From: Streptomyces lincolnensis
GTDB lineage: Bacteria > Actinomycetota > Actinomycetes > Streptomycetales > Streptomycetaceae
Length of the DNA: 64,000 nt
Direction of reading: 5' to 3'
Assembly: GCF_001685355.1 (NCBI RefSeq)
Contig: NZ_CP016438.1
Location: 4,464,001 to 4,528,000 of the forward strand
A model generated the notes under the pieces. The model was not told the origin of the DNA and ran no database searches. It worked only from the letters and a program-made list of their open reading frames with translations. Both the position numbers and the translations under genes were made by a program. Shown piece by piece: positions 3,491-36,305 of the stretch; positions within the stretch are counted from its first letter, which is position 1; every line of letters begins with the position of its first letter.

Positions 3491-4651
3491 CACCGCCCGC
3501 CGGCTCTCCCCCCACCAGCCGAGCGCCATCAGCAGCAGGCCCAGACCCACGCCGGCCAGGATGGCCGTGGACGGAGCGACCACCTGGAGCAGGGTGCCGG
3601 CGAGCGAGCCCGTCGCCGCGTAACCGGCGCCCGCGGCCGCGTACATCACGGAGTACCCGGCGGCCAGGGCCCCGGGCGGCACGGCCTCGCGCAGGGACAG
3701 GTTGCGGGTGATCAGCGCACCCGACTGGAGCGTGCCCGCCAGGACGAGGGCGACCGCGATCCCGGCCGCGCCCGGTATCAGCGCGGCGAGCGCCACGAAG
3801 GCCGACATGCCGCCCATCAGGACGACACTGCGCGTCCGGAGCCGCCCCGGCCACGACCGCAGTCCGTACAGGAACGCCCCGACGCCCGCTCCCACGGCCA
3901 GTCCCGCCAGCATCGGACCGGACCAGCCGACGCCGATGCCCCGCTGCTCCAGCAGGGCGGGCAGGGTCAGCTCGGCCAGGCCGAGCAGGGTGAGGCTCGC
4001 CGCGCCCGTGACGTACACCGGCCAGGCGCGGACCAGCACACGGACCTTTACGCGGCCGGTGTCCCCGTCCTCGTCCGCCCCGCCCCAGCCGGCGGGCAGC
4101 AGTCGGTGGCCCACGATCGCCGCCGCCATGAGCGCGGCCCCGAGGAGCAGCGGGACGCGCGGGGCGATCCCGAGGGCGAGTCCGGCGACCGCGACCGGGG
4201 AGACCGCCCACACCCCGGACATCAGCATCGACTCGGTGGACAGCGCCTGCGCCACGGCGCGTTCGGGGATCAGCGAGGTCAGCAGCGTCCGCTGACCGCC
4301 GGCCACCGCGGCCGGCGCGGCACCGGCGAGGAACGCGAACGCGCCGAGCACGAGCGGGTGCGCCCCCGCCAGTACCCCGAGCCCGGCGAACCCCACCGCT
4401 CCGCCCGCGAGGCCGAGCGTCAGATGGCGCCGGCCCCGGGCCGGGTCCAGCCGCATCCCGAGGACCGGCGCCCCGGCGATCTCGCCGAGCACATAGGCCG
4501 CTGCGAGCGCCGCACCCAGCGAGTAGCCGCCGGGCCGCTCCCGCACCAGGAAGACCAGGGCCAACGGCGCCATGGCGACCGGCATACGGGCGGCGACGGC
4601 CGCGCCGGCCCAGATCAGGACCTGCTGGGAGGCGACGTCACGGTAGGTCAT
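3398..4651 (-). CDS. MFS transporter
   Basis: 417 residues, almost wholly hydrophobic, with about 12 membrane segments rich in Ala, Gly and Leu and a cytoplasmic loop near the middle (GADEDGDTGRVKVRV). It fits a drug/metabolite exporter of the major facilitator superfamily; no substrate can be assigned. The C-terminal tail (about the last 35 residues, Ala/Gly-rich) is read from DNA that also encodes the end of the AdpA-like gene on the other strand, an antisense overlap of 93 bases. The start codon is 53 bases from a cluster of DnaA boxes in its promoter region. Confidence 0.8.
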   Translation of the reverse strand: MTYRDVASQQVLIWAGAAVAARMPVAMAPLALVFLVRERPGGYSLGAALAAAYVLGEIAGAPVLGMRLDPARGRRHLTLGLAGGAVGFAGLGVLAGAHPLVLGAFAFLAGAAPAAVAGGQRTLLTSLIPERAVAQALSTESMLMSGVWAVSPVAVAGLALGIAPRVPLLLGAALMAAAIVGHRLLPAGWGGADEDGDTGRVKVRVLVRAWPVYVTGAASLTLLGLAELTLPALLEQRGIGVGWSGPMLAGLAVGAGVGAFLYGLRSWPGRLRTRSVVLMGGMSAFVALAALIPGAAGIAVALVLAGTLQSGALITRNLSLREAVPPGALAAGYSVMYAAAGAGYAATGSLAGTLLQVVAPSTAILAGVGLGLLLMALGWWGESRRAVSGAARGAAVGVAAGAEGAPIAGGGDAERRL

Positions 4652-4703
4652 GCGTCGACGCTATGCGTCGGCACCGACAGGCCCCCACGGATTTTCCGCA
4701 GCC

Positions 4704-4764
4704 TGTGGACAACCCCGCTTCCGGCGCCCTGTGGACAACCCGGTTTCCCGGAGCCTGTGGACAA
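4704..4764. other. cluster of three DnaA boxes at 26-bp period
   Basis: Three perfect copies of TGTGGACAA (reverse complement TTGTCCACA, the preferred Streptomyces DnaA box) start at 4704, 4730 and 4756, exactly 26 bases apart and all in the same orientation. The 26-base units are degenerate tandem repeats (GCCTGTGGACAACCC followed by a C/T-rich spacer). They fill the gap between the MFS start (4651) and the alcohol dehydrogenase stop (4786). The arrangement suits DnaA binding or titration, or autoregulated transcription, rather than an origin: no dnaA, dnaN or oriC-scale box array is present. Confidence 0.75.
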
Positions 4765-4785
4765 CCCCGGCCGGGCACAGACACG

Positions 4786-5835
4786 TCAGAACGTCAGCAC
4801 CCCCCGAGCCACCCGGCCCGCCTCCGCGTCCCCCGCCGCCTTCTCGAAGTCCTCGACGGGATAGGTCTGCGTCGCCAACTCGTCCAGCAGCAGCCGCCCC
4901 TGCCGGTACAGCTCGGCGTAGACCGCGATGTCCCGCTGCGGCCGCGACGACCCGTACCGGCAACCCAGGATCGACTTGTCCAGGTACATCGACGAGACCA
5001 GGAAGGACGCCTCGGCGCCCGCGGGCGGGACGCCGAGGAGGATCGCCTGTCCATGGCGGTCCAGCAGGTCGATCGCCTGCCGGATCAGCTCGACCCGCCC
5101 GACGCACTCGAAGGCGTGGTCCGCCCCGGTGGGCAGCAGGTCCCGCACCCCTTCCGTCGAGGTCAGGAAGTCGGTCGCGCCGAACGTCCGGGCCACCGCC
5201 TCCTTCGCGGGGTTGGCGTCCACGGCCACGATCCGCAGCGCGCCCGCGATGCGCGCGCCCTGGATGACGTTGAGCCCGATCCCGCCCGTGCCGATCACCA
5301 GCACACTGTCCCCCTGCCTCACCCCGGCCCGGTTCAGCACGGCACCGACCCCGGTCAGCACCCCGCACCCGATGAGCGCGGCCGACGGCATCGGGATGTC
5401 CTTCGGGATCCGCACCGCCTGCACGCCCCGCACCACGGTCCGTTCCGCGAAGGCGGAGTTGGACGCGAACTGGAACACCGGCTGCCCGCCCCGCGTGAAC
5501 GGCCGCCCCGGCCGCCCGATCGCCTGCCGGCACATCGTGGGCCGCCCCCGGTCGCAGTCGGCGCAGGCCCCGCAGTTGGCGAGCGTGGACAGGGCCACAT
5601 GATCCCCGGGGGCCACATGCCGCACCCCCGCGCCCACGGCCTCCACCACCCCGGCGCCCTCATGCCCCAGCACCACAGGAACCGGGAAAGGTATGGTCCC
5701 GTCCACCACAGACAGGTCGCTGTGGCACAGCCCCGCCGCCGAGATCGCGACCTGCACCTCACCGGGCCCGGGATCCCGTACGACGAGATCGTCCACGACC
5801 TCGACCCGCTTGCCGTCGAACACCACGCCACGCAT
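4786..5835 (-). CDS. zinc-dependent alcohol dehydrogenase (MDR family)
   Basis: 349 residues with a complete medium-chain dehydrogenase signature. Catalytic zinc ligands are seen in GLCHSD, GHEGAGVVE and IGCGV; a structural-zinc loop has four cysteines (CGACADCDRGRPTMC); the Rossmann motif is VLVIGTGGIGLNVIQ. It should oxidise an alcohol or reduce an aldehyde with NAD(P). The ATG at 5835 shares its A with the TGA of the upstream acyl-CoA dehydrogenase (TGATG), so the two are translationally coupled. It is the last gene of the SDR, acyl-CoA dehydrogenase, alcohol dehydrogenase unit. The substrate is probably an alcohol intermediate of the same catabolic route. Confidence 0.9.
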   Translation of the reverse strand: MRGVVFDGKRVEVVDDLVVRDPGPGEVQVAISAAGLCHSDLSVVDGTIPFPVPVVLGHEGAGVVEAVGAGVRHVAPGDHVALSTLANCGACADCDRGRPTMCRQAIGRPGRPFTRGGQPVFQFASNSAFAERTVVRGVQAVRIPKDIPMPSAALIGCGVLTGVGAVLNRAGVRQGDSVLVIGTGGIGLNVIQGARIAGALRIVAVDANPAKEAVARTFGATDFLTSTEGVRDLLPTGADHAFECVGRVELIRQAIDLLDRHGQAILLGVPPAGAEASFLVSSMYLDKSILGCRYGSSRPQRDIAVYAELYRQGRLLLDELATQTYPVEDFEKAAGDAEAGRVARGVLTF

Positions 5836-6989
5836 CACACAGCCCCGCCCTTCGGCTCCCTCGGCAGACCGAGCACGCGCTCGGCGATGATCGTGCGCTG
5901 GATCTGGTCGGAGCCGCCGTAGATCGTGTCGGCGCGCGAGAACAGGAACTGCCGCTGCGACTCGTCCAGTTCGTACGGCGCAGAGGCCGACCACTCCCCG
6001 GGCCCCACCGCCCCCGCCGCGCCCCGCACCAGCATCGCCAGCTCCCCCAGCCGCTGATGCCACCCGCCCCACAGCACCTTGGCCACACTCGGCGCCCCCT
6101 GGTCCCCCGAACCCCCGAGCGTCCGCAACGCGTTCCACCGCATCACCCGCAACTCGGCCCACTGCCGCACCAGCCGCTCCCGTACGACGGAGTCCCGCAC
6201 CGCGCCGGTCGCCACGGCCAGCTCCACGACCCGCCCCAACTCCCGTGCGAACCCGATCTGCTGGGCCAGCGTCGACACCCCCCGCTCGAACCCGAGCAGA
6301 CTCATCGCGACCCGCCAGCCGCCCCCCTCGCCCCCCACCACATGCTCCGCACGCGCACACGCCCCGTCGAAGAAGACCTCGTTGAACTCACTCGTCCCGG
6401 TCATCTGCCGAATCGGCCGCACCTCGATCCGCCCCGGCTGATCCATGGGAACGAGCAGAAAAGTCAGCCCGCGGTGCCGCCGCGACTCCGGATCGCTGCG
6501 AGCGAGTACGAAGCACCAGTCCGCCTCCTGCGCGAGCGACGTCCAGATCTTCTGCCCGCTGACCCGGTACGTCCCGTCCGCGCCCCGCTCGGCCTTCGTC
6601 CGCACCCCCGCCAGATCCGACCCGGCACCCGGTTCGCTGTACCCCTGACACCACAGCTCGTCCCCGGCCGCGACCGGAGGCAGAAACCGCGACTTCTGCT
6701 CCTCCGTCCCATGAGCCAGCAGCGTCGGAGCCAGCAGATTCTCCCCAATATGCCCCGACCGCGAAGGCGCCCCCACCCGCGCGTACTCCTCGGCCCAGGC
6801 GACCTGCTGAGTCAGCGTGGCACTCCGATTGCCATATCCACTCTCCGGCCAACCCAGCCCGATCCACCCGGACTTGCCGAGGGTCCGCTCCCAACTCCGA
6901 CGGTCGGAGGCCCCCTCGACATGAGCCGCAAGCCACTCCCGCGCCTCACCCCGGAACACCTCATCCTCACCAGTGAACCCAAACTCCAC
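5835..6989 (-). CDS. acyl-CoA dehydrogenase family protein
   Basis: 384 residues with the usual N-terminal helical, middle beta and C-terminal helical domains. Signature segments are GYSEPGAGSDLAGVRT (FAD/substrate loop), SGQKIWTSLAQEADW and the C-terminal DQIQRTIIAERVLGLPR. It should introduce an alpha,beta double bond into an acyl-CoA with FAD. The GTG at 6989 is chosen because GAGAGGAGAG lies about 7 bases upstream; an open frame extends further but has no homology. The SDR gene upstream is separated by a copy of the intergenic repeat. It is translationally coupled to the alcohol dehydrogenase. Confidence 0.9.
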   Translation of the reverse strand: MEFGFTGEDEVFRGEAREWLAAHVEGASDRRSWERTLGKSGWIGLGWPESGYGNRSATLTQQVAWAEEYARVGAPSRSGHIGENLLAPTLLAHGTEEQKSRFLPPVAAGDELWCQGYSEPGAGSDLAGVRTKAERGADGTYRVSGQKIWTSLAQEADWCFVLARSDPESRRHRGLTFLLVPMDQPGRIEVRPIRQMTGTSEFNEVFFDGACARAEHVVGGEGGGWRVAMSLLGFERGVSTLAQQIGFARELGRVVELAVATGAVRDSVVRERLVRQWAELRVMRWNALRTLGGSGDQGAPSVAKVLWGGWHQRLGELAMLVRGAAGAVGPGEWSASAPYELDESQRQFLFSRADTIYGGSDQIQRTIIAERVLGLPREPKGGAV

Positions 6990-34314: not shown

Positions 34315-34454
34315 AGGAACCCGCTCCCTCCCTGCGTACGCCTTGATCCCGATCTTCCTACGGCGATCCTGATGGATGCCTCAGGACTTACGGGCCGCCG
34401 CTAGCAGCAAGATCGGCTATGCGTTCGACGATTCAGGATCTTTCGCACGAACGA

Positions 34455-34800
34455 GCGCCATCGACTGATTCAGTCGATCACTGACGGCTTGGTCATTAGC
34501 GTTGCTTGCACCCTTCGGAAAGGAGGTCACTCGCTCCCCAACGCAGGTTGCCGAGTGACCAGCCCCAGTCATCACGATCCCCAAGATCAGGGAGGTGCCC
34601 CGATGACTACGTTCCCCGCAGGTGAGTAGACCCACCAGGCTGTGCTTCCTCAGCAGCCTGCTCTGGAATCCGTGGGAGCAGACACCCCCGGGAGCAGGGA
34701 CGAAACGGCTCACGGACATCCCGCCACCGCGCGGGACACCGGCCGGGAACATGGGCGAGGGGAGACCGACGGGCGCGGTGACGCTCCCCCGCACAACCCG
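34455..34800 (+). ncRNA. structured leader upstream of the iscB remnant; candidate omega RNA (HEARO)
   Basis: IscB proteins use an RNA encoded just upstream of their gene. This stretch is rich in potential stems: ATCGACTGA/TCAGTCGAT (34460-34478), GGTCACTCG/CGAGTGACC (34525-34560), AGTCATC/GATGACT (34567-34608) and TCCGTG/CACGGA (34669-34716), and no frame has good coding bias except a short minus-strand one. The position and folding potential fit a HEARO/omega RNA, but similarity to a known one was not tested. It may be as decayed as the protein. Confidence 0.35.
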
Positions 34801-34827
34801 CCGTACACCGGCGGCATCGGCGCGAGC

Positions 34828-36045
34828 AGAGTCTTCGTCCTGTCCAAGGACGGACACCCGCTCATGCCCTGCCACCCCGCCCGCGCCCGGGAACTCCTCG
34901 GCAAGGGACGGGCCGTGGTCGCCCGACAAGTACCCTTCGCCATTCGGCTGCGTCGACCCCGGCTCCAAGGGCACGGGTCTCGCCCTCACCGACGAGAAGA
35001 AGGAAGTCGACGCGCACGGCGCCGTCGTCACCGTCAGACGCGGGCTCACAGCACTGGAACTCCAGCACCGCGGCGACCAGAACCACCGATCCATGCAGCA
35101 GCGTGCCGGTTACCGACACCGGCGGCGCTCCGCCAACTGCCGCTACCGAGCCCCTCGCCCAGACAACCGACCGCGCCCCGCAGGATGGCTCCCACCCTCC
35201 CTGCGCCACCGCGTCGACACCACCTATTCCCAGGCAGCACGCCTCTGCCGCTACGCCCCCGCCACCGAGATCCACATCGAACGCGTCGCCTTCGACACCC
35301 ACGCCATGAGCGCGGGCAGACCCCTCACCCAAGCCGAGTACCAGCAAGGCACACTCGCCGGAACCGAAGCCCGCGCCTACCTCCACGCCAAGTGGAACCA
35401 CTCCTGCGCCTACTGCGACGCCACCGGCGTACCCCTGAACATCGACCACCTCAGGCCCCGCAGCCAAGGAGGGTCGAACCGCATCTCCAGCAGGTGAGAA
35501 CGCCCCTCCATGACGCCGCCGCCATGAACGCGACCCGTTGGCAGCTCACGGAAACCCTCAGCGACCTCGGCAAGCCGGTACACGCCTGGTCAGGCGGCCG
35601 TACGAAGTGGAACCGCAGCGCCATGGGACTGGAGAAGACCCACACCCTGGACGCGCTGTCGGTCGGGCGCCTGAATCATCAGAGCGGCGACGCCATCGTG
35701 CGGTTCCCGGGGCAGGTGCTCAACGTCAAAGCCACCGGTCGCGGATCGTACGCCCGCACCACTCCGGACCGCTTCGGGTTCCCACGGCTCCGCCGGGCCC
35801 GCACCAAGCAGCACTTCGGGTACGTCACCGGGGATCTTGTCCGGGCCCATGTACCGACCGGCAAGTGGGCAGGCACATGGACCGGGCGCATCTCCGTCCG
35901 CGCCAGGGGGCAACACAGCCTCACCACACCGAGGGGTCGTATCAACGTCTCCCACCGGAATCTGAGACTGCTGCAACGGGGCGACGGATACGGCTACAGC
36001 ACCCGGCAGGAACTCTCAGAGTCAACTTCTCAAAAAACCGGTTGA
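34828..36045 (+). pseudogene. iscB: IscB (OMEGA) RNA-guided nuclease, decayed by deletions and frameshifts
   Basis: Homology runs across two frames. Frame A (34828-34950): RVFVLSKDGHPLMPCHPARA through VPFAIRL, the PLMP domain. Frame B (34952-35497): RuvC-I VDPGSKGTG (Asp codon 34955), Arg-rich bridge segment YRHRRRSANCRYR, GWLPPSLRHRVDT, RuvC-II IERVAFDTH (Glu codon 35279), HNH start CAYCDATGVPLNIDHLRPRS (Cys codons 35405 and 35414, His 35447), then TGA. Frame A again (35491-36045): TPLHDAAAMNATRW, SGGRTKWNR, RuvC-III HTLDALSVG (Asp codon 35650) and a C-terminal TAM-interacting-type domain GDLVRAHVPTGKWAGTW to LLQRGDGYGY. The linker after PLMP and the second half of the HNH domain are missing at the frame junctions. 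No normal start codon precedes PLMP. Sequencing error cannot explain the missing segments. No TnpA-like transposase is adjacent. Confidence 0.85.
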
Positions 36046-36103
36046 TCCGTGCCGGACCTCTTCCTAAGGTGTCGCTTACGCATGAGAGGAGGTGATCGGG
36101 TAC

Positions 36104-36142
36104 ATGAGTGAAACCCGGACGCGCGAGGTGGCTGCGGGCTAG
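36104..36142 (+). CDS. possible 12-codon leader-type ORF with perfect Shine-Dalgarno
   Basis: ATG at 36104 is preceded, 6 bases away, by AGGAGGTGATC (36087-36097), an 11-base perfect complement of the 16S rRNA 3' end. The frame encodes MSETRTREVAAG and stops. No gene follows on this strand, so it is either a small peptide gene, the 5' stump of a deleted gene, or chance. Its 3' half can form a GGTGGC/GCCACC stem (36127-36154). Confidence 0.3.
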   Translation: MSETRTREVAAG

Positions 36143-36177
36143 CGGCTCGCCACCACACCTAGTGCGGTGCCGGACCA

Positions 36178-36305
36178 GCGTGTGCGCGAAACACGCAGCC
36201 GGCCCAAACCAACGCAGTCACCCGACCCGCGAGCTCGCCGGTAACGTCCGGCCGGCTCCCCAGCCGTCAGGCGGGGGAACCCGAGTTCGCGGGTCGTCTG
36301 CGTTG
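36178..36305. terminator. long imperfect hairpins downstream of citrate synthase
   Basis: CAACGCAG (36210-36217) plus CCGACCCGCGA pairs with TCGCGGGTCG plus CTGCGTTG (36298-36305), giving a large stem of about 20 pairs with bulges, 12 bases from the citrate synthase stop. A second stem, GCGTGT/ACACGC (36178-36196), flanks it. The natural reading is the terminator of the minus-strand citrate synthase gene, though the size is unusual. Confidence 0.5.

What the first reader, a model, noticed from the sequence alone, without database searches (positions are those of the whole stretch)
34828..36045. Decayed IscB (OMEGA nuclease) between a GNAT gene and citrate synthase
PLMP, RuvC-I/II/III, the first half of HNH and the C-terminal GDLVRA/GDGYGY domain are all recognisable and in the right order but split over two frames. 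The three RuvC acidic residues are intact (codons 34955, 35279, 35650), while the HNH second half and a linker are deleted. It is a fossil of an RNA-guided nuclease in a Streptomyces core region, and the losses show which parts went first.
Basis: partly seen in the sequence, partly recalled or inferred. Interest (0 to 1): 0.75.

Follow-up and report, generated by a model that had tools for sequence, protein, structure and literature searches.

The report
Broken RNA-guided nuclease beside its target
This is an apparently recently broken copy of a bacterial RNA-guided DNA cutter that sits next to a small-RNA gene, and in related species the cutter's guide matches that small-RNA gene in other strains but not the carrier's own copy, which looks like a natural gene-drive-like (homing) element.

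Summary
In detail: window 34828-36045 carries a broken IscB in three pieces (frames a-b-a), RuvC acids intact, part of HNH lost. The copy is no isolated fossil. The same omegaRNA-IscB cassette sits directly upstream of Ms_IGR-5 in 25 of 392 Streptomyces genomes, and 28 of 40 distinct carriers keep an open IscB. The 16-nt guide is not the insertion flank. It resembles the start of Ms_IGR-5 in other species, followed by GTG, and never comes within 3 mismatches of the carrier's own site (0 of 40). The commonest guide end plus GTG occurs once per genome in 131 of 392 genomes but in only 1 of 25 carriers, whose IscB is broken. Two carriers' guides match a second Ms_IGR-5 site, again not their own. 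I infer RNA-guided intronless homing: IscB cuts non-self Ms_IGR-5 alleles, and repair copies in the cassette with its resistant allele. Cleavage and spread are untested, the IscB tree is mostly vertical, and one of my self-avoidance tests was not significant.

The parts
34370..36045 (+). whole cassette (left end approximate): omegaRNA promoter region, guide, scaffold, broken IscB
   Evidence: host-flank homology of relatives ends 131-164 nt upstream of the guide junction in 4 clear carrier/empty pairs of 10 compared; homology of the window to empty-site G001 ends at 34369
34442..34457 (+). block TTCGCACGAACGAGCG, seen in similar form near the left end of many carriers
   Evidence: alignment of carriers, letters
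34497..34502 (+). -10-like TAGCGT in front of the guide, spacing similar to the -10-like box of Ms_IGR-5
   Evidence: promoter inferred, not tested
34510..34525 (+). omegaRNA guide ACCCTTCGGAAAGGAG (16 nt; length and end +-2 nt inferred)
   Evidence: lies directly before the HEARO model start; comparison across 40 carriers
34526..34770 (+). omegaRNA scaffold (HEARO RF02033)
   Evidence: 62.3 bits, E 5e-11; 14 of 60 predicted pairs have at least one of 18 sequences with both sides changed and the pair kept
34828..34956 (+). IscB piece 1, frame a: PLMP region
   Evidence: NF040563 model 1-41
34949..34950 (+). 47-bp deletion point, frame a to b
   Evidence: alignment with 6 intact carriers
34943..35497 (+). 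IscB piece 2, frame b: RuvC-I (D 34955), arginine-rich region, RuvC-II (E 35279), first half of HNH
   Evidence: NF040563 model 57-222, above cut-off
35488..36045 (+). IscB piece 3, frame a: RuvC-III (D 35650) and C-terminal domain; about 100 bp of HNH and linker missing before it
   Evidence: NF040563 model 256-314; gap sizes
36042..36047 (+). -35-like TTGATC of Ms_IGR-5; the IscB stop TGA 36043-36045 lies inside it
   Evidence: the same overlap in 24 of 28 intact carriers
36065..36070 (+). -10-like TAAGGT of Ms_IGR-5
36076..36091 (+). own target-equivalent site TTACGCATGAGAGGAG, followed by GTGATC; 6 of the last 14 nt differ from the own guide
36078..36302 (+). sRNA gene Ms_IGR-5 (RF02471), the presumed target gene
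   Evidence: 64.1 bits, above gathering
36112..36127 (+). second target site AACCCGGACGCGCGAG followed by GTGGCT; 16 of 16 match to the guide of S. griseorubiginosus (L063/L121)

Best explanation
The window holds an apparently recently broken copy of an omegaRNA-IscB cassette that lives at one chromosomal place in Streptomyces, just upstream of the promoter of the sRNA gene Ms_IGR-5. Shown by sequence: the cassette is at the same place and mostly intact in other species; its guide does not match the own Ms_IGR-5 but resembles, often closely, Ms_IGR-5 of other species, with GTG next to the match; the commonest such target occurs once per genome. Inferred: intact IscB with its guide cuts the Ms_IGR-5 allele of chromosomes that lack the cassette. 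The break is repaired from a carrier chromosome, for example during mycelial mating, and this copies in the cassette together with its linked, uncuttable Ms_IGR-5 allele. This would be RNA-guided 'intronless homing', close in logic to engineered cleave-and-rescue drives. Guides and Ms_IGR-5 alleles would then chase each other, and cassettes decay once their targets are gone, as in the window.
For: omegaRNA and IscB directly upstream of Ms_IGR-5 in the window's genome and 24 others of 392; 15 further omegaRNA loci fetched later are not at Ms_IGR-5. 28 of 40 distinct carriers have an open IscB; in these RuvC D, E, H, D and two HNH N are present in 28 of 28, the HNH H in 27 (L056 has Y); dN/dS median 0.20 in 120 pairs of 16 carriers. 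Guides of 40 carriers: best match to another species' Ms_IGR-5 has 0/1/2/3 mismatches of 16 in 3/11/16/10 guides; column-shuffled guides average 0.15/1.55/7.8/16.5 over 20 shuffles. All 40 best matches are followed by GTG: 38 at one register, L063 and L071 36 nt further; the L063 guide plus GTG is found in 10 of 118 Ms_IGR-5 but not in its own. Own guide/own site: 0 of 40 within 3 mismatches of 16, against 8.05 expected from non-carrier alleles (P 4.5e-5) and 3.36 from other carriers (P 0.026). Nearest-relative test: guide mismatches 3.93 to the nearest non-carrier's site against 5.48 to own, Wilcoxon one-sided P 0.0015, n=40. Commonest guide end plus GTG: one hit in each of 131 of 392 genomes, reversed control 1 hit in 392; carriers 1 of 25, the rest 130, Fisher P 4e-5 for 1 of 31 carriers and remnants against 130 of 361. 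With up to 2 mismatches, G049 and G212 hold no copy of their guide plus GTG except the guide gene itself; G001, G063 and G067 have one perfect hit each. The guide in its own gene is followed by GTC, GCC or ATC in 40 of 40 carriers, the Ms_IGR-5 site by GTG in 40 of 40.
Against: No cleavage, expression or inheritance bias has been shown. The IscB tree is largely vertical (Spearman 0.55 with species distance; 8 of 25 splits shared; only 5 of 14 strong splits conflict), so spread between species looks rare, and within-species spread was not observable. Self-avoidance by mean mismatch against other carriers' sites is not significant (P 0.14-0.32 for 8-20 nt); 5 of 40 own pairs share 8 or more contiguous letters next to GTG (other carriers 0.23, non-carriers 0.36). 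Carriers are not independent; only the paired test handles relatedness. 26 of 40 guides keep 2-3 mismatches to their best target, the window's own guide 3. TAM, guide length and guide position come from knowledge of IscB, not from a test here. IscB lacks an ordinary start codon near the conserved N-terminus in 10 of 15 intact carriers checked.
Confidence: 0.6

Rival explanations
1. Relic of a classical ISC (IS200/605-like) transposon: the guide is simply an old copy of the target sequence at insertion, and later recombination shuffled Ms_IGR-5 alleles; nothing is targeted today.
For: The family is transposon-associated (recalled; PMC9755519, passages); the IscB tree is mostly vertical and 12 of 40 carriers are not open, as expected for a stranded element.
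Against: The guide is inside the cassette, not its flank: host homology ends 131-164 nt upstream of it in 4 clear pairs of 10. Guides of L063 and L071 match a different site in Ms_IGR-5, which an insertion fossil does not explain. Open frames, catalytic residues and dN/dS 0.20 persist. The commonest target is nearly absent from carriers.
Confidence: 0.2
2. Self/non-self barrier kept for the host: carriers destroy incoming or resident DNA with foreign Ms_IGR-5 alleles (marker exclusion), without spread of the cassette.
For: The same guide/target data; a mostly vertical tree with purifying selection.
Against: No reason to aim at one's own neighbour gene unless linkage matters; patchy presence (25 of 392) and frequent loss.
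Confidence: 0.12
3. The cassette regulates its neighbour Ms_IGR-5 in cis by partial pairing, like TldR or short-guide Cas9.
For: Proximity; the own guide and own site share 4-5 letters next to GTG in 32 of 40 carriers and 7-9 in 6.
Against: Own pairs fit worse than pairs with relatives; nuclease residues are intact, unlike nuclease-dead TldR (recalled).
Confidence: 0.05
4. The likeness of guide and Ms_IGR-5 start is only a shared -10 box plus Shine-Dalgarno-like GGAGG.
For: Both have a TAG-like box, about 20 nt and GGAGGT in most carriers.
Against: Shared variable haplotypes beyond column composition; the exact 17-mer occurs once per genome in 131 of 392 with 1 control hit; 6 related omegaRNAs at other places lack GGAG there; the second-site guides lack the motif.
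Confidence: 0.03

Closest known systems
IscB / OMEGA (HEARO) RNA-guided nucleases
   Same: PLMP, RuvC, HNH and C-terminal domain; HEARO-type RNA upstream; NF040563 match above cut-off
   Different: one fixed chromosomal site; guide not derived from the insertion flank; the window copy is broken
Intronless homing of free-standing endonucleases (phage T4 SegF/SegG; PMC2988022, passages read)
   Same: cassette beside the target gene, cut site apart from the insertion site, downstream promoter overlapping the nuclease gene; own allele not cut (recalled)
   Different: the cut would be aimed by an RNA guide, in a bacterial chromosome; activity not shown; distance about 75-100 nt rather than hundreds to thousands
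TnpB-driven spread of IS200/605 in plasmids (PMC11870625, abstract and passages read)
   Same: RNA-guided cutting of copies that lack the element
   Different: there the guide records the insertion flank and a transposase moves the element; here the guide resembles a neighbour gene's non-self alleles
Engineered cleave-and-rescue gene drives (PMC7951863, search listing and start of abstract only)
   Same: nuclease with guide, linked to an uncuttable version of the target gene
   Different: natural, bacterial, target an sRNA gene whose essentiality is unknown
TldR, nuclease-dead TnpB repressors (recalled)
   Same: resident guide RNA system whose guides resemble one gene
   Different: here nuclease residues are intact and the own gene is not matched

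Membership tests
IscB / OMEGA | match to the IscB profile over PLMP, RuvC I-III | tested here: met
   NF040563 over three pieces; RRXRR; PDB IscB chains match piece 2 and an intact relative, none match piece 3
IscB / OMEGA | RuvC acids D, E, D | tested here: met
   codons 34955, 35279, 35650; 28 of 28 open relatives
IscB / OMEGA | complete HNH domain | tested here: not met
   second half deleted in the window; HNH columns present in open relatives, the H in 27 of 28
IscB / OMEGA | single open reading frame | tested here: not met
   three pieces, two frames; 28 of 40 carriers have an open frame
IscB / OMEGA | HEARO/omegaRNA upstream | tested here: met
   RF02033, E 5e-11, below gathering, and no gathering-level HEARO in 18 relative loci; paired changes in 14 of 60 pairs
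IscB / OMEGA | RNA-guided cleavage | not testable with these tools
   needs bench work
ISC / IS200-605 transposon | guide equals the sequence flanking the insertion | tested here: not met
   host flank ends 131-164 nt before the guide in 4 clear pairs of 10; a fifth, short one (L050/L081) ends further out; the other 5 are uninformative on the left
ISC / IS200-605 transposon | scattered insertion sites | tested here: not met
   24 fetched relatives of this clade all have Ms_IGR-5 directly downstream; a second clade, 22 fetched loci, sits elsewhere
ISC / IS200-605 transposon | TnpA transposase | not tested
   six neighbouring genes scanned are not transposases; the rest of the genome was not searched
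Intronless homing element | patchy presence at one site, empty alleles exist | tested here: met
   25 of 392 carriers, at least 10 with IscB remnants only; sites without the cassette read
Intronless homing element | target in alleles lacking the element, absent from carriers | tested here: met
   mean-mismatch test among carriers not significant
Intronless homing element | biased inheritance in crosses | not testable with these tools
   tree mostly vertical between species
TldR-like repressor | nuclease-dead, guide matches the regulated own gene | tested here: not met
   catalytic residues present in open relatives; own site mismatched

The most novel reading that the evidence does not exclude
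A natural RNA-guided homing drive with a linked rescue allele: Streptomyces lineages carry rival omegaRNA-IscB/Ms_IGR-5 haplotypes, each aimed at the Ms_IGR-5 alleles of others and immune to itself, in a continuing allele arms race around one core sRNA gene; the window is a casualty of that cycle.
Probability: 0.45. Interest if true: 0.92.

Novelty: new variant of a known kind. Interest (0 to 1): 0.8.

Why it matters
Why IscB nucleases persist in chromosomes, often without a transposase, is open (PMC9755519, passages: few HEARO nucleases lie near TnpA). This locus gives a concrete, testable answer: guides aimed at non-self alleles of a neighbour gene. It would be a natural counterpart of RNA-guided homing and rescue drives in a bacterial chromosome. 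It also offers guide/target pairs predicted from sequence, including a second target site, and a series of decayed copies.

Tried and rejected
Rejected: an isolated fossil (25 of 392 genomes have the cassette at this place); another IscB in the same genome driving this omegaRNA (none found; the other NF040563 hits cover only the HNH part, model 182-242); long-term exaptation of the RNA after loss of the protein (considered because in the 13 closest loci the RNA is about 90-96% identical and the IscB DNA 75-81%; the window's IscB pieces still look constrained, so it cannot be said); guide as insertion flank (I held this view for a while, note); cis-regulation (own sites mismatched). Self-avoidance by permutation of mean mismatches among carriers failed to reach significance and is reported. 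Other IscB clade: in 6 loci examined no good guide match near their own loci, one 3-mismatch hit. A draw of 300 from the genus gave no new carrier. Plasmid search: one S. canus plasmid IscB at 70% and one Polaromonas; the S. canus region was fetched, but no omegaRNA core was found by my motif, so its guide is unread. Literature listings were capped (for example 15 of 26 and 12 of 160 papers shown).

Counting notes: the first guide extraction mis-placed several junctions and was redone. Carrier loci whose guide or site could not be read (L064, L066, L073, L116, L130, L136) were left out of the 40; duplicate loci of one genome were merged by guide and site. The non-carrier set of 79 includes one mis-read locus (L250), dropped but counted, and at least two loci with small IscB remnants (L178/G083, L259/G160). 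The Fisher test took 6 remnants; searches show four more (G083, G160, G177, G292), none of them with the 17-mer, so remnants are 0 of 10 and the rest 130 of 357. Thresholds are unadjusted. The hypothesis was formed on the carriers plus 3 empty sites, then checked on Ms_IGR-5 alleles read afterwards and on the 392-genome pattern search.

Full report
What is there. Piece 1 (34828-34956, frame a), piece 2 (34943-35497, frame b) and piece 3 (35488-36045, frame a) match the NCBIfam IscB model NF040563 at positions 1-41, 57-222 and 256-314. Solved IscB chains (TbaIscB, HfmIscB, OgeuIscB) match piece 2 and an intact relative; piece 3 alone matches none. The second half of HNH is gone. Compared with intact relatives there are three losses: about 70 bp between the RNA and the gene, 47 bp before RuvC-I and about 100 bp in HNH. 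The neighbours are GNAT and citrate synthase. Searches of the genome showed no second HEARO and no second IscB, only HNH-part matches.

A HEARO/omegaRNA match covers 34526-34770 (E 5e-11, 62.3 bits, below the gathering score 83; none of 18 relative loci scanned reaches it either). Among 18 aligned sequences 14 of 60 predicted pairs keep pairing through changes on both sides in at least one sequence. Just downstream lies the actinobacterial sRNA gene Ms_IGR-5 (36078-36302), matched in 78 of 80 and again 78 of 80 Streptomyces genomes searched (some matches partial). It is marked as seen by RNA-seq in S. lividans (PMC8079986, passage) and detected as a transcription unit in S. avermitilis (PMC8780764, passage). 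The IscB stop codon lies in the TTGA of its -35-like box in the window and in 24 of 28 open carriers.

The locus in other species. Of 392 Streptomyces genomes searched, 24 others plus the window's have omegaRNA and IscB (or part of it) directly upstream of Ms_IGR-5, with PAS/GNAT and citrate synthase/PNPOx genes near by in varying order and orientation. At least 10 more have only an IscB remnant there (6, 4). Related IscBs of a second clade (22 fetched loci) are not beside Ms_IGR-5. A scan of named genomes put names to several carriers (S. regalis, S. cyaneochromogenes, S. albiflavescens) and added others (such as S. coeruleorubidus and S. viridochromogenes). Of 40 distinct carriers with guide and Ms_IGR-5 both read, 28 have an open IscB and 12 are broken in different ways. 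In the open ones the RuvC residues are complete in 28 of 28 and the HNH histidine in 27. Pairs of 16 of them show dN/dS 0.20 (median of 120); the window pieces show 0.205 against open copies, so there is no sign of long decay. The IscB tree follows the species largely but not fully.

Boundaries. In 4 clear pairs among 10 carrier/empty comparisons, host homology ends 131-164 nt upstream of the guide in the carrier and 72-99 nt upstream of the corresponding point of Ms_IGR-5 in the empty site; in all 10 the Ms_IGR-5 promoter region aligns better than shuffles between carrier right end and empty site. So the cassette includes its own promoter-like region, guide, scaffold and IscB, and sits just upstream of the sRNA promoter. 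The guide is not the insertion flank. By eye, some empty-looking sites (L217, perhaps L082 and L222) keep a short tail of the IscB end next to the promoter.

The guide. In IscB the guide is the stretch just before the scaffold (recalled). In 38 of 40 carriers this stretch resembles the first part of Ms_IGR-5, up to the point followed there by GTG. Best matches to another species' Ms_IGR-5 have 0, 1, 2 or 3 mismatches of 16 in 3, 11, 16 and 10 of the 40 guides; guides shuffled within columns give 0.15, 1.55, 7.8 and 16.5. The guide of L063 (S. griseorubiginosus) matches instead a site 36 nt further in, 16 of 16, in 10 of 118 Ms_IGR-5 sequences but not in its own; the last 12 nt of the L071 guide match the same place in 3 others but not its own, its full guide with 3 mismatches at best; GTG follows in both. 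The window's Ms_IGR-5 carries the perfect L063 target at 36112-36127.

Self and non-self. No carrier's guide comes within 3 mismatches of 16 of its own site (0 of 40; expected 8.05 from non-carrier alleles, P 4.5e-5; 3.36 from other carriers, P 0.026, unadjusted). By mean mismatch against other carriers the difference is not significant. Against the nearest non-carrier relative the guide fits better than against the own site (3.93 and 5.48 mismatches of 14, n=40, P 0.0015). The commonest guide end with GTG has one hit in each of 131 of 392 genomes (reversed control: 1 hit in all 392): 1 of 25 carriers (a broken one), 0 of 10 known remnants and 130 of 357 others (the Fisher P of 4e-5 used 1 of 31 against 130 of 361). 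In the guide's own gene it is followed by GTC, GCC or ATC in 40 of 40 carriers, never by GTG.

Reading. These data fit an element whose nuclease is aimed at Ms_IGR-5 alleles of chromosomes that lack it, with its own allele changed. The closest known behaviour is intronless homing of free-standing phage endonucleases, where the cut lies away from the insertion and promoters of downstream genes are embedded in some of the nuclease genes (PMC2988022, passages). RNA-guided spread is known for TnpB insertion sequences in plasmids, where the guide records the insertion flank (PMC11870625, abstract and passages). I saw no report of a chromosomal IscB of this kind in the listings of searches; the listings are capped, the library holds only open-licence papers, and Altae-Tran 2021 and Weinberg 2009 could not be read. 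Cutting, repair-copying and spread remain inference. Vertical descent between species argues that any drive acts within species.

Verdict. The window finding is a confirmed broken IscB, apparently recent, with an intact-looking omegaRNA. By itself it is an ordinary pseudogene; the family it belongs to is not ordinary. Filed as a member of IscB with two defining features (single frame, full HNH) not met in this copy; filed as 'works like' intronless homing, not as a proven member.

Noticed in passing
window 36104-36142 and 118 Ms_IGR-5 sequences: Ms_IGR-5 holds a 12-codon frame after a strong Shine-Dalgarno (MSETRTREVAAG in the window; pattern M-x-x-x-R-T-x-E-V-x-A-G in 116 of 118), but variation per codon position is flat (0.46/0.47/0.42 bits), so RNA constraint is as likely as a peptide.
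   Followed up: partly
L050-L089, e.g. L052 against L050: The citrate synthase/PNPOx gene pair beside Ms_IGR-5 is inverted or moved repeatedly between species, in carriers and non-carriers.
   Followed up: no
L057 (G182) 3813-6287: About 2.5 kb is inserted inside the omegaRNA scaffold although IscB stays open.
   Followed up: no
intact carriers, e.g. L054 4069-4090: Of 15 syntenic intact IscB checked, 10 have no ATG, GTG or TTG within 60 nt in frame upstream of the conserved start; how translation starts is unclear.
   Followed up: no
L075-L077, L079, L084-L086, L270-L277, L279-L285: A second IscB clade with related RNAs sits at other places in Streptomyces genomes, sometimes more than one copy per genome; what its guides aim at is unknown.
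   Followed up: partly
carriers against non-carriers, first 6 nt after the site: GTGATC prevails in carriers (26 to 13 GTGGTT) and GTGGTT in non-carriers (61 to 15), Fisher P 1e-6, not corrected for relatedness; part of the escape may lie in the adjacent motif.
   Followed up: partly
L056 (G196) IscB: One open carrier has Y in place of the HNH histidine (27 of 28 have H), so it may cut one strand only.
   Followed up: no
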